34,726 bases of DNA from a virus: positions 1 to 34,726 of IMG/VR virus record IMGVR_UViG_3300042874_000020. One strand, given 5' to 3'. The position numbers were made by a program, and so were the translations under genes. How positions within the stretch are numbered: the first letter of the stretch is position 1; every line of letters starts with the position of its first letter. This document shows, piece by piece, positions 1 through 2,688 of this stretch. The notes beneath the pieces are model-generated. The model ran no database searches, was not told the DNA's origin, and saw nothing but the letters and a program-made list of their open reading frames with translations.

Positions 1-2688
1 GGAGCGAACTGGCTAGCAGGTGAGGCCTGCATCTACCCGAGCTTCTACGGTGTCGTCAGCCCGACGCACGATGACGTTCGATACACTTGTTTAGATCCGT
101 CCTCATTAGTTTTGACGCAGTGTAATGGGTGGCTTAGGATTGATCAAGTAGCCCCCGGTGATCTCGTGATTACCCGTCAAGGCCCCAAGCGTGTCGTGAA
201 GGCGGGACAGACGGGTGTTCGACGTGTGATGGAGATCCATTACACCGGGGGGTCGTTGAAGTTGACGCCAGAGCACCCTGTATGGAGCGAAACAAGAAAG
301 CAGTTCCTTCCCGCATCCAAACTTCGGTTGGGCGAAATCTTGCACCGGTCGAACTTATCGTGTTCAACGGCCGAAAGTACTGTCGATACCCGGAATCAAA
401 GTATCGACAGTTCCAGCACTATTTCTACGCAACGGCAAAGCCTCGTACGTTGCTTCATCGCGATGTTTGGGAGTACCACAACGGCCCTATTCCAGAAAGC
501 CACGACGTACATCACACGAAAAGTTGGCGTCACAACCAGATCGAACATCTGGGACTTCTTACTCAAGCAGAGCACTCAGAACTGCATGACAGTCGCAGGA
601 AATGGCTACGGTCTCCCGCAGGGCAGCAACACCTCCATCAAATTAGAAAACCAGAAAAGTTCATCGAGTGGATTCACTCCCTTGCCGGGCGTCGACACAG
701 CAAACAAAGCATGGCGCGGATTCACGAGAAAGTACTGCGACCTACTAAAACCGTCTGTGCTACCTGCGGGTCTACGTTCACTGCTCAGAGGACCTACGGC
801 GCTAAATTCTGTCCCAAGTGTAAGTCGGTTAAAACAAAGCCCACCACACCTGTGGGGGGGAGCACGAACGAATGTCGGTGTACGATCTGTCAGCACATCT
901 TCTATGCGGCCAACCCAACAGCCAAATACTGCTCGGACGGTTGTTATCGAACGAATCAGCGGCGTAAACAGAGACGCCATACCCGTCTACAACCTAGAAG
1001 TTGAGGGCTGCCCAGAATATTTTGCTAACGGAATTCTTGTACACAACTGCTTCGAGGGACCGACTGGTCTGTTGTCGGTGATCCCACCGAAGCTCGTGGT
1101 CGATCGCAACCAAGCACTGCCGTCGATCACGTTGTGGAACGGATCCATCCTCCGAGGCTTTGCAGGCGACACGCCCGAGCGGCTTCGCGGTCCGCAGCAC
1201 GCCTGCATTGCTGGGGGGATGCTAGTGCGCATGGCGGATGGGGCGGACAAGCCGATAGATCAAGTTAAGGTTGGGGATTTCGTCTTAACCCGTGGCGGAG
1301 CCCGGAGAGTTCTCGATGCCCGGTGCACACGGCGGGGGGCTCCAACTTGGACGTTGCGGTCCTCAACGTCGGTGTTGCGTGGCACGATGGAGCACGTTAT
1401 TCGTACCCCCGAAGGCGACATACCACTGTGTCAGCTAAGAAGAAATCAAAGGCTGTACGCTGCGGGCGAAAATACCGCAGTAGAACGGCGCACCGGCCCT
1501 ATCGAAAAGATTACGTTCGTCGAGAACGTAGAGCCATCCGGGATCTTTGAGGACGTCTATGATCTGACGGTTGAAGGGGACCACGAGTTTTTTGTCAACG
1601 GAGTATTAGTTCACAACTGTGTGTGGTGCGACGAGATCGCTAGCTGGAAGTACCCGCAGGAGGCCTGGGACAACATCGCTTTCGGTTTGCGGCTCGGTCA
1701 TCGCCCACGCATCTGCGTCACGGGTACACCGAAGCCGACACCGTTCATTCGCAAGCTGCAGCTCGACAAGCGGACCGTCGACGTCGTTGGGGCGACGTAT
1801 GAAAACCGCGAGAACCTGACCCAGTACTTCTTCGAGTCGATCGCGAAGTACGAAGGCACACGCGTTGGTCGCCAAGAGATTCACGGCGAGGTGCTCGATC
1901 CGGAAGAAGAGGGGTTCGTGCAGCGCAGCCAATGGCGCGTCTGGCCGCACGACAAACCACTGCCGAAGTTCAGCTACATCGTGCTGTCGCTTGACCCTGC
2001 GTTCACTGCAAAGAACTACGACAAGCGCAAGCAGGAAAACGATCCGTCAGCAGTGAGCGTGTGGGGCGTGTTCATGCAGCCACGGCAGAACAAGCCACCA
2101 TTGCCGCACGTGATGCTGCTCGACGCCTGGGAAGATTGGCTCGGCTTCCCTGATCTGATTACACGGATCAAGAAGGAGAAGGAATACACCTACGGTGATG
2201 CCGACGAGCCGGTTCTGAAGCCGAAGATCATCCCGAAGGATCAGCGTGCGAAGCACCAAGGTCGCAAACCAGACATCATCCTGATCGAAGAGAAAGCGTC
2301 GGGGATCTCGCTGCGGCAACAGCTCGCGGACGAGAACATCTTGACGCACGGCTACAATCCGGGTAATGACGACAAGCTAACGCGACTACACTACGTGTCG
2401 CCTATGTTCCCTGCCGGTCGAGTGTGGGCTGTTGAATCGAACATCAACCCAGGCAACTTCAAATCCTGGGCCGATCCACTCATCACTCAAGTTTGCTCGT
2501 ACGTGGGCCCCGGCTCGATCGAACGCGACGATCTCCTCGACAGCGCTACTCAAGGACTGCGGCTGATCATGGATCGCTTCTTTGGCCCACTTACCCTCGT
2601 CGACAATGTCGAAGAACGTGAACGTGCACGTGCGCGAGAGATCGCGGAACGACGCGTGAAAAAGAACCGCAACCCGTACGACAATTGA
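1..2688 (+). CDS. terL: Terminase large subunit (DNA-packaging ATPase/nuclease), 5'-partial, containing two inteins
   Basis: This is the motor that pumps phage DNA into the prohead and cuts it. The frame is open from base 1, so the start and probably the Walker A loop lie just upstream; the first residues (GANWLAGEA) resemble what normally follows GKT in this family. Removing the inteins leaves three extein pieces: 1-87, 1048-1203 and 1618-2685, about 437 residues. The Walker B acidic pair is D-E at 1630-1635, a TGTP coupling motif lies near 1720, and the RuvC-like nuclease carboxylates are D at 1993 (LSLDPAF), E at 2287/2290 (LIEEKASG) and D at 2530/2539 (RDDLLDSATQG). The conserved stretch LRGPQHA|CVWCDE is split by the second intein. 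An ATG-only reading would start wrongly inside the intein. Family assignment is firm; activity depends on splicing, which is inferred. Confidence 0.95.
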   Translation, partial: GANWLAGEACIYPSFYGVVSPTHDDVRYTCLDPSSLVLTQCNGWLRIDQVAPGDLVITRQGPKRVVKAGQTGVRRVMEIHYTGGSLKLTPEHPVWSETRKQFLPASKLRLGEILHRSNLSCSTAESTVDTRNQSIDSSSTISTQRQSLVRCFIAMFGSTTTALFQKATTYITRKVGVTTRSNIWDFLLKQSTQNCMTVAGNGYGLPQGSNTSIKLENQKSSSSGFTPLPGVDTANKAWRGFTRKYCDLLKPSVLPAGLRSLLRGPTALNSVPSVSRLKQSPPHLWGGARTNVGVRSVSTSSMRPTQQPNTARTVVIERISGVNRDAIPVYNLEVEGCPEYFANGILVHNCFEGPTGLLSVIPPKLVVDRNQALPSITLWNGSILRGFAGDTPERLRGPQHACIAGGMLVRMADGADKPIDQVKVGDFVLTRGGARRVLDARCTRRGAPTWTLRSSTSVLRGTMEHVIRTPEGDIPLCQLRRNQRLYAAGENTAVERRTGPIEKITFVENVEPSGIFEDVYDLTVEGDHEFFVNGVLVHNCVWCDEIASWKYPQEAWDNIAFGLRLGHRPRICVTGTPKPTPFIRKLQLDKRTVDVVGATYENRENLTQYFFESIAKYEGTRVGRQEIHGEVLDPEEEGFVQRSQWRVWPHDKPLPKFSYIVLSLDPAFTAKNYDKRKQENDPSAVSVWGVFMQPRQNKPPLPHVMLLDAWEDWLGFPDLITRIKKEKEYTYGDADEPVLKPKIIPKDQRAKHQGRKPDIILIEEKASGISLRQQLADENILTHGYNPGNDDKLTRLHYVSPMFPAGRVWAVESNINPGNFKSWADPLITQVCSYVGPGSIERDDLLDSATQGLRLIMDRFFGPLTLVDNVEERERARAREIAERRVKKNRNPYDN
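88..1047 (+). other. Intein 1 in terminase (320 residues, class 1 type)
   Basis: This is a self-splicing protein insert in the terminase frame. It starts at Cys codon 88 (CLDPSSLVL) and ends at His-Asn (VHN, Asn codon 1045-1047), followed by Cys+1 at 1048. Block A runs through WLRIDQVAPGDLVITRQG. Block B is LKLTPEHPVWS with the T-x-x-H pair. The C-terminal blocks are VYNLEVEG and YFANGILVHN. The usual block F histidine position (compare EGDHEFF in intein 2) reads CPEYF here, so that His looks replaced by Pro. Between roughly 350 and 930 the intein frame encodes a Ser/Thr-rich stretch with no recognisable domain; the same DNA encodes an HNH endonuclease in another frame. Boundaries are well supported by the Hint motifs and by terminase sequence on both sides. 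Splicing itself is inferred. Confidence 0.92.
282..1004 (+). CDS. HNH homing endonuclease nested in intein 1 in an alternative reading frame
   Basis: The 240-residue protein lies wholly inside intein 1 but in a frame offset from the terminase/intein frame. Its HNH nuclease core reads LHRDVWEYHNG, then IPESHDVHH (His77-His78), RHNQIEHL (Asn85) and LLTQAEHSELH. Two Cys4 zinc-finger-like units follow: C159/C162...C177/C180 and C200/C203...C217/C221, ending in a basic tail. Such proteins cut intein-free or intron-free alleles so that the element is copied in. The frame is open from 162; the only ATG is 282, with just a weak GAG about 8 bases upstream, so the start is uncertain and a non-ATG start or frameshift entry is possible. 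The last 70 or so bases overlap the code for the intein's C-terminal splicing blocks. The 601-660 stretch is 48% GC by hand count versus 60% at 2281-2340, consistent with later arrival. Confidence 0.85.
   Translation: MERNKKAVPSRIQTSVGRNLAPVELIVFNGRKYCRYPESKYRQFQHYFYATAKPRTLLHRDVWEYHNGPIPESHDVHHTKSWRHNQIEHLGLLTQAEHSELHDSRRKWLRSPAGQQHLHQIRKPEKFIEWIHSLAGRRHSKQSMARIHEKVLRPTKTVCATCGSTFTAQRTYGAKFCPKCKSVKTKPTTPVGGSTNECRCTICQHIFYAANPTAKYCSDGCYRTNQRRKQRRHTRLQPRS
1204..1617 (+). other. Intein 2 in terminase (138-residue mini-intein)
   Basis: This second self-splicing insert starts at Cys codon 1204 (CIAGGMLVRMADG) and ends at VLVHN (Asn codon 1615-1617) before Cys+1 at 1618. Block A includes IDQVKVGDFVLTRGG, block B is LRGTMEHVIRT with T-x-x-H, and the C-terminal blocks are VYDLTVEGDHEFF and VNGVLVHN with the block F histidine present. 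At 138 residues it is close to the minimum for a splicing domain and has no room for an endonuclease. It sits four residues before the Walker B D-E pair, a highly conserved spot of the kind inteins favour. It differs enough from intein 1 that a recent tandem copy is unlikely. Confidence 0.93.

What the first reader, a model, noticed from the sequence alone, without database searches (positions are those of the whole stretch)
282..1004. HNH homing endonuclease nested in an alternative frame inside a terminase intein
The usual arrangement fuses a homing endonuclease in frame within an intein. Here the DNA between the splicing blocks of intein 1 encodes a complete HNH protein with two Cys4 fingers in another frame, while the intein/terminase frame stays free of stops for over 200 codons and reads as a Ser/Thr-rich filler. 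The HNH frame also overlaps the code for splicing block B and the C-terminal blocks. This would give a free nuclease whose expression is independent of splicing. I do not know of a described system like this but cannot check the literature.
Basis: partly seen in the sequence, partly recalled or inferred. Interest (0 to 1): 0.92.

Follow-up and report, generated by a model that had tools for sequence, protein, structure and literature searches.

The report
Nuclease gene hidden inside an intein
A phage DNA-packaging gene carries a self-splicing protein insert (intein) whose middle DNA is read twice, once as a disordered linker that keeps the intein in one piece and once, in another reading frame, as a DNA-cutting enzyme, and the same two-layer design recurs in at least 47 divergent phage inteins, so it appears to be an overlooked third way of building a mobile intein.

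Summary
Window 88-1047 is a class-1-type intein in terL with all splicing residues. Residues 1-90 and 281-320 form a confident HINT fold; the roughly 190 residues between are predicted disordered. The same DNA encodes an HNH_3/zinc-finger nuclease (282-1004) in the -1 frame.

The layout recurs: about 98 intein loci carry this HNH family out of frame (47 clusters below 60% nt identity), in phage isolates, viral contigs and microbial genomes. The phase is always the same, and no member of the family was found in the intein frame. An Endonuclease VII family is nested the same way, including in mycobacteriophage Chandler TerL, whose intein was shown to splice (Kelley 2016).

Intein-frame stops in the overlap: 0 observed, 136 expected. 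Substitutions show that the nuclease frame is conserved and the linker drifts. Most relatives have a start with a Shine-Dalgarno-like sequence after the intein N-part. Highwayman against Acba_21 shows a homing-type co-conversion tract. The window's orthologue L129 has the same intein at the same site; other relatives have empty sites.

The closest precedent is the ShiLan out-of-frame HNH, which lacks an intein. Expression and cleavage remain untested here.

The parts
1..2688 (+). terL (large terminase), 5'-truncated by the contig end; open frame carrying two inteins
   Evidence: (Terminase_6N/6C, Intein_splicing); relatives 82-84% identical without inteins
88..1047 (+). intein 1 (320 aa), inserted SPTHDDVRYT^CFEGPTGLL
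   Evidence: C1, T60xxH63, H319-N320, C+1; empty site in 14 relatives; same site occupied in L129
88..357 (+). intein N-terminal splicing part (residues 1-90)
   Evidence: AF2 pLDDT 92-98; Foldseek gp41-1 intein E 7.6e-7
358..927 (+). linker/filler of the intein frame (residues 91-280), disordered; sequence dictated by the HNH frame
   Evidence: pLDDT about 40-60; conserved G128 and G195 are by-products of HNH Trp63/Trp130 codons
928..1047 (+). intein C-terminal splicing part (residues 281-320, blocks F and G)
   Evidence: pLDDT 86-98
282..1004 (+). nested HNH endonuclease gene, 240 aa, -1 frame relative to terL/intein; HNH frame open from 162, no SD at ATG282
   Evidence: Pfam HNH_3 4e-7; AF2 mean pLDDT 88; profile matches I-HmuI 1u3e, E 0.0015
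450..578 (+). HNH_3 domain of the nested nuclease (residues 57-99)
756..821 (+). zinc cluster 1 (C159-C162...C177-C180)
   Evidence: invariant in the family alignment
879..944 (+). zinc cluster 2 (C200-C203...C217-C221)
   Evidence: sequence; alignment
1204..1617 (+). intein 2, 138-aa mini-intein without endonuclease, at the Walker B motif (GPQHA^CVWCDE)
   Evidence: empty in relatives

Best explanation
Intein 1 is a cis-splicing mobile intein whose homing endonuclease gene is overprinted in another reading frame. Read in the terL frame, the DNA gives a HINT splicing domain interrupted by a long unstructured linker, and the intein excises from TerL (inferred for this window; splicing was shown by others for Chandler TerL6-f, which has the same layout). 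Read in the -1 frame from an internal start, the middle DNA gives a free HNH/zinc-finger nuclease. The nuclease cuts an intein-less terL allele in a co-infecting phage, and repair copies the whole element (homing; inferred, with a co-conversion tract in a relative). Selection acts on the linker only to keep it free of stops, and on the nuclease as a normal protein.
For: Same layout in about 98 loci, always phase -1, none in frame. Zero stops against 136 expected in the linker frame, whereas free-standing and split homologues carry about the expected number in that frame. Substitutions at HNH positions 1/2/3 are 145/97/371 in the overlap, against intein positions 47/26/154 in the N-block. C1, H63 and N320 invariant in 46 inteins. 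HINT fold at both ends with a disordered middle. Start-codon SD run of at least 5 nt in 52% against 12% in controls. Co-conversion tract: all 15 differences within -163..+12 of the insertion, none in the other ~2.9 kb examined. Orthologue at the same site plus empty sites. Endonuclease VII nested the same way, including Chandler gp6, an intein shown to splice (PMC5050341).
Against: No protein or RNA evidence for the nuclease. The window copy lacks an SD at ATG282 and has no start nearer the conserved domain except GTG360. The window and L129 share HHT/HHK in place of HHxD and His for the usual Asn89, so activity is not certain. Nested/split status was assigned by ORF structure, which partly selects for stop-free frames. 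Co-conversion was seen in a relative, not in the window.
Confidence: 0.86

Rival explanations
1. Paired compensating indels (assembly or sequencing error) have moved an in-frame HNH domain out of frame.
For: The window is a single uncultivated viral contig.
Against: Same phase and layout in 47 divergent clusters and in finished isolate genomes; orthologue L129.
Confidence: 0.01
2. The nuclease is made as an intein-N/HNH fusion by -1 programmed ribosomal frameshifting, which would explain the constant -1 phase.
For: HNH is always at -1 relative to the intein (80 of 82 pairs); in the window the HNH frame is open from 162, upstream of ATG282.
Against: 59 of 66 non-redundant nested loci have an HNH-frame stop within 60 nt upstream of the HNH start, and only 5 have a canonical in-phase slippery heptamer; none in the window. 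SD-preceded starts are common. The -1 phase is also the one with fewer intrinsic stops in free-standing homologues, which is enough to explain it.
Confidence: 0.06
3. The nested nuclease is not a homing enzyme but a packaging helper (as proposed for the HK97 HNH protein) that sits in terL for co-expression.
For: Free-standing members sit next to terS/terL; HNH proteins can assist terminase (PMC10448857).
Against: Sporadic presence with empty sites in close relatives and the co-conversion tract point to mobility; intein-less relatives package without it.
Confidence: 0.07
4. The insertion is removed as RNA (a group I or II intron carrying an HNH ORF) and the open terL frame is incidental.
For: Phage terL introns with neighbouring endonuclease genes are known (PMC10448857).
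Against: No Rfam intron match; complete, conserved intein splicing residues and HINT fold.
Confidence: 0.01

Closest known systems
ShiLan domain / Pacc40 hidden HNH (Arsenault, Gosselin & Gogarten 2025, PMC11855218)
   Same: An HNH in another frame inside a stop-free insertion in a phage gene, with a disjunct homing-like distribution and an unanswered question of how it is translated.
   Different: That insertion has no intein or intron splicing module and sits in a dispensable methylase. Here the host is an essential terminase and the insertion is a complete intein. Three tblastn searches with this HNH family listed no mycobacteriophage match, so the nucleases are not close kin.
Mobile inteins with an in-frame homing endonuclease (LAGLIDADG mostly; HNH_3 in cyanophage CL131 dCTP deaminase, PMC6293099; L182 here)
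   Same: HINT splicing domain with a nuclease between blocks B and F; insertion at conserved motifs; empty alleles.
   Different: The nuclease is a separate overlapping gene, not a domain of the intein; the intein frame there is disordered linker.
Split inteins with a homing endonuclease ORF between the halves ('fractured genes', Dassa et al. 2009; paper not held, known from citation and general knowledge)
   Same: Free-standing HEG placed between the intein N and C parts; 18 split loci in this HNH family (L010, L016, L105 and others).
   Different: The nested form has no stop, so the intein stays one chain and should splice in cis.
Mycobacteriophage TerL6-f intein (Chandler gp6; Kelley et al. 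2016, PMC5050341)
   Same: TerL intein, splices readily; shown here to carry a nested Endonuclease VII in the -1 frame.
   Different: Different nuclease family; I found no mention of a nested nuclease in the passages of that paper that I read.
I-HmuI-type HNH homing endonucleases (PDB 1u3e)
   Same: Best PDB match of the HNH profile and model.
   Different: Intron-encoded, different DNA-binding part; similarity is weak (E 0.0015 and 0.038).

Membership tests
Intein (class 1 HINT splicing element) | Cys1, block-B TxxH, C-terminal HN and a Cys/Ser/Thr +1 residue | tested here: met
   window residues C1, T60, H63, H319, N320, C+1; invariant C1/H63/N320 in 46 nested inteins
Intein (class 1 HINT splicing element) | HINT fold formed by the N- and C-parts | tested here: met
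   AF2 pLDDT >86 at both ends; Foldseek gp41-1, DnaB and RecA inteins
Intein (class 1 HINT splicing element) | Excision restores a continuous host protein | tested here: met
   joined exteins match intein-less TerL of relatives
Intein (class 1 HINT splicing element) | Protein splicing activity | not testable with these tools
   shown by others for Chandler gp6, same layout, different nuclease (PMC5050341)
Conventional intein-encoded homing endonuclease | Nuclease domain in the intein reading frame | tested here: not met
   HNH lies in the -1 frame
HNH_3 endonuclease family | Significant match to PF13392 with HNH-motif residues | tested here: met
   4e-7, above the curated cut-off; H77, H78, N85, H98 conserved, N89 replaced by His
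Homing endonuclease (functional) | Cuts the empty allele; element inherited with co-conversion | tested here: inconclusive
   co-conversion tract in Highwayman/Acba_21; cleavage not testable here
Split intein / fractured gene | N and C parts in separate ORFs | tested here: not met
   one open frame 1-2688; split relatives exist
ShiLan-type out-of-frame HNH insertion | Out-of-frame HNH in a stop-free insertion with no splicing module | tested here: not met
   a splicing module is present
Group I/II intron | Conserved intron RNA structure | tested here: not met
   no Rfam match at gathering thresholds

The most novel reading that the evidence does not exclude
Overprinted homing endonuclease genes are a third, widespread architecture of mobile inteins beside in-frame and split ones. 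Unrelated nucleases (HNH_3 and Endonuclease VII) have entered it separately, always in the -1 phase, because that phase needs the fewest stops removed. Free nucleases can thus colonise an intein inside an essential gene without having to fold as one of its domains.
Probability: 0.75. Interest if true: 0.92.

Novelty: new variant of a known kind. Interest (0 to 1): 0.87.

Why it matters
Large inteins whose middle looks like meaningless or degraded filler would often be recorded as having lost their endonuclease. Here that filler is a second gene, so intein censuses and gene annotation would miss mobile inteins: TJE1, Highwayman, Chandler and others are annotated only as terminase. It offers a clean natural system for studying long overlapping genes, because one frame only has to stay open while the other is a normal enzyme. 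It shows how a free homing endonuclease can exploit an essential gene through protein splicing without fusing to the intein, and it links nested and split states within one nuclease family.

Tried and rejected
Single-contig statistics: the open linker frame in the window alone is not significant (P about 0.05-0.12), so the family test is needed. Scanning IMG/VR with the window HNH alone found one locus matching only a short zinc-cluster stretch; the 12-sequence alignment worked. L112/L113 (+1 phase, weak intein matches, no Pfam hit) were set aside as probably spurious. ORF 1323-1550 in intein 2 has no Pfam match and is probably chance. Programmed frameshifting was tested and disfavoured. Rfam intron search was empty. 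Literature: 10 searches of open full texts found the ShiLan papers but no intein with a nested nuclease; Dassa 2009 is not held, and subscription journals and preprints could not be checked.

Full report
WHAT IS THERE. Window 1-2688 is one open frame encoding a 5'-truncated large terminase with two inteins. Intein 1 spans 88-1047 (320 aa) and intein 2 spans 1204-1617 (138 aa). Intein 1 has C1, a block-B T60xxH63, the C-terminal HN and a Cys at +1. The ORF 282-1004 lies in the -1 frame relative to terL and encodes a 240-aa protein with an HNH_3 domain (Pfam 4e-7) and two Cys4 clusters.

EMPTY SITES AND AN ORTHOLOGUE. Relatives whose TerL is 82-84% identical have no intein at either site (SPTHDDVRYT^CFEGPTGLL and RGPQHA^xIWCDE), which fixes the boundaries. 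In L129, with TerL 65% identical, the first site is occupied by a related intein with the same HNH nested in the same frame, starting at the equivalent Met. Over the middle of the overlap, HNH identity is 0.46 and linker identity 0.27. Over the first 21 codons, which also code the end of block B, the intein frame is the better conserved one (0.75 against 0.62).

RECURRENCE. A profile of 12 HNH relatives and scans of viral contigs and microbial genomes gave loci that I classified with HNH and intein N/C-block profiles. In the first set, 82 N-block/HNH/C-block combinations in 80 loci had both intein blocks in a single ORF with the HNH in another frame. The phase was -1 in 80; the two others, L112 and L113, are doubtful. 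The genome scan and L129 added 24 more, all -1. With a strict HNH cut-off the totals are 98 nested, 18 split, 20 with no detected intein, 7 partial and none in frame. The 78 nested loci aligned for clustering reduce to 66 non-redundant and 47 clusters below 60% nucleotide identity. They include isolate genomes sequenced independently: Tetrasphaera phage TJE1 and Acinetobacter phage Highwayman. L049 carries two such inteins in one TerL. L067 carries a conventional in-frame LAGLIDADG intein and a nested-HNH intein in the same gene.

A SECOND NUCLEASE FAMILY. The first intein of L019 (whose second intein carries the HNH) contains an Endonuclease VII (PF02945, 1.1e-20) in the -1 frame. The same holds in L155, in L202-L206, in Gordonia phages Nordenberg and Keitabear and in Mycobacterium phages Phlyer, Vincenzo and Chandler. 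Kelley et al. 2016 (PMC5050341) cloned the Chandler gp6 intein (TerL6-f) and found that it splices readily. They linked endonuclease activity to an identifiable domain only in two other TerL inteins. So a nested-nuclease intein has already been shown to splice, and I found no mention of its hidden gene in the passages read.

BOTH FRAMES ARE UNDER SELECTION, DIFFERENTLY. Shuffling synonymous codons within each HNH gene predicts 135.8 stops in the intein frame over 78 loci; none is seen. In the third frame 1194 are seen against 1270 expected. In 21 free-standing or split relatives the same frame carries 1-15 stops each, close to expectation. The nested/split assignment uses ORF structure, so part of this contrast is definitional; the AT-rich cases with both intein blocks in one ORF are still very improbable without selection. 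For the window alone P is only 0.05-0.12. In nine independent pairs, differences at HNH codon positions 1/2/3 are 145/97/371 in the overlap, the pattern of a protein-coding HNH frame. In the N-block, differences at intein positions 1/2/3 are 47/26/154. The near-invariant linker residues G128 and G195 are the second and third bases of conserved HNH Trp63 and Trp130 codons plus the next base, so they are by-products of the HNH.

STRUCTURE. AlphaFold2 of intein 1 gives pLDDT 92-98 for residues 1-90 and 86-98 for about 281-320, and about 40-60 between. Foldseek finds gp41-1 and other inteins. The HNH model has mean pLDDT 88; the family profile matches only I-HmuI in the PDB (E 0.0015; Foldseek E 0.038).

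HOW THE NUCLEASE IS MADE. In many relatives an AGGAGG-like sequence precedes an ATG just after the intein N-part. An SD match of at least 5 nt is present at 52% of nested starts, against 12% of control windows. In 59 of 66 loci a stop in the HNH frame lies within 60 nt upstream, which argues against a frameshift fusion; canonical slippery heptamers in phase occur in 5. Free-standing relatives have fewer stops in the frame corresponding to this phase than in the other (typically about 8 against 21), which may explain why the phase is constant. The window is an exception in lacking an SD and an upstream stop near its start, so its expression route is inferred from the family.

MOBILITY. Highwayman and the intein-less Acba_21 differ at 15 positions in terL, all between -163 and +12 of the insertion point. 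They do not differ in 394 bp upstream of terL, in the rest of terL or in the next 1387 bp. The tract includes a Leu to Cys change at +1, needed for splicing. This is the signature expected of a recent homing event with co-conversion, and it is the best evidence that a nested-HNH intein moves.

EVOLUTION. On an HNH tree (FastTree, many weak branches) nested, split and intein-less states are clustered but interchange: the least number of label changes is 18 for nested, of which starred branches force 5. BP10, close to Highwayman, has a free-standing relative beside terS. A plausible path, inferred only, is entry of a free nuclease gene near terL into an intein, followed by loss of stops in the intein frame, with split inteins as intermediates or derivatives.

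NOVELTY. The closest description is the ShiLan domain (PMC11855218), an out-of-frame HNH in a phage methylase insertion with no intein or intron module. In-frame HNH inteins (for example CL131 dCTP deaminase, PMC6293099; L182 here) and split inteins with a HEG between the halves are known. An intact cis intein with an overprinted endonuclease gene was not found in ten full-text searches, which do not cover subscription journals or preprints. I rate it a new variant of a known kind.

LIMITS. Splicing, translation, cleavage and homing were not tested here. The window and L129 share unusual residues in the HNH core (HHT/HHK, His for Asn89), so activity of this lineage needs direct testing.

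Noticed in passing
window 1204-1617: A second, 138-aa mini-intein without endonuclease at the Walker B motif of the same TerL; the 75-aa ORF 1323-1550 inside it has no Pfam match.
   Followed up: partly
L019 1971-3032 and 3759-4769: One TerL carries two inteins, each with an out-of-frame nuclease of a different family (Endonuclease VII and HNH_3), both in the -1 phase.
   Followed up: yes
L067 1260-4817: One TerL holds a conventional in-frame LAGLIDADG intein and a nested-HNH intein.
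   Followed up: partly
L200 1721-2485 (Mycobacterium phage Chandler gp6): An intein known to splice hides a nested Endonuclease VII ORF (1867-2418).
   Followed up: yes
L010, L011, L012, L016, L034, L099, L105-L107, L111: TerL inteins split into two ORFs with an HNH ORF (in BL3 only a remnant) between or overlapping the halves; possible natural trans-splicing inteins.
   Followed up: partly
L013 2432-3207 (Exiguobacterium phage vB_EauM-23): HNH ORF between terL and a short downstream stretch resembling a TerL C-terminus, with no intein blocks and no Rfam intron match: an unrecognised intron or a broken gene.
   Followed up: no
L182 1398-2039 (Nitrososphaerales MAG): Conventional in-frame HNH in what looks like a ribonucleotide reductase intein, a useful contrast.
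   Followed up: no
L066: Split version inside a cluster of closely related nested elements: recent loss of the cis frame or a sequencing error.
   Followed up: no
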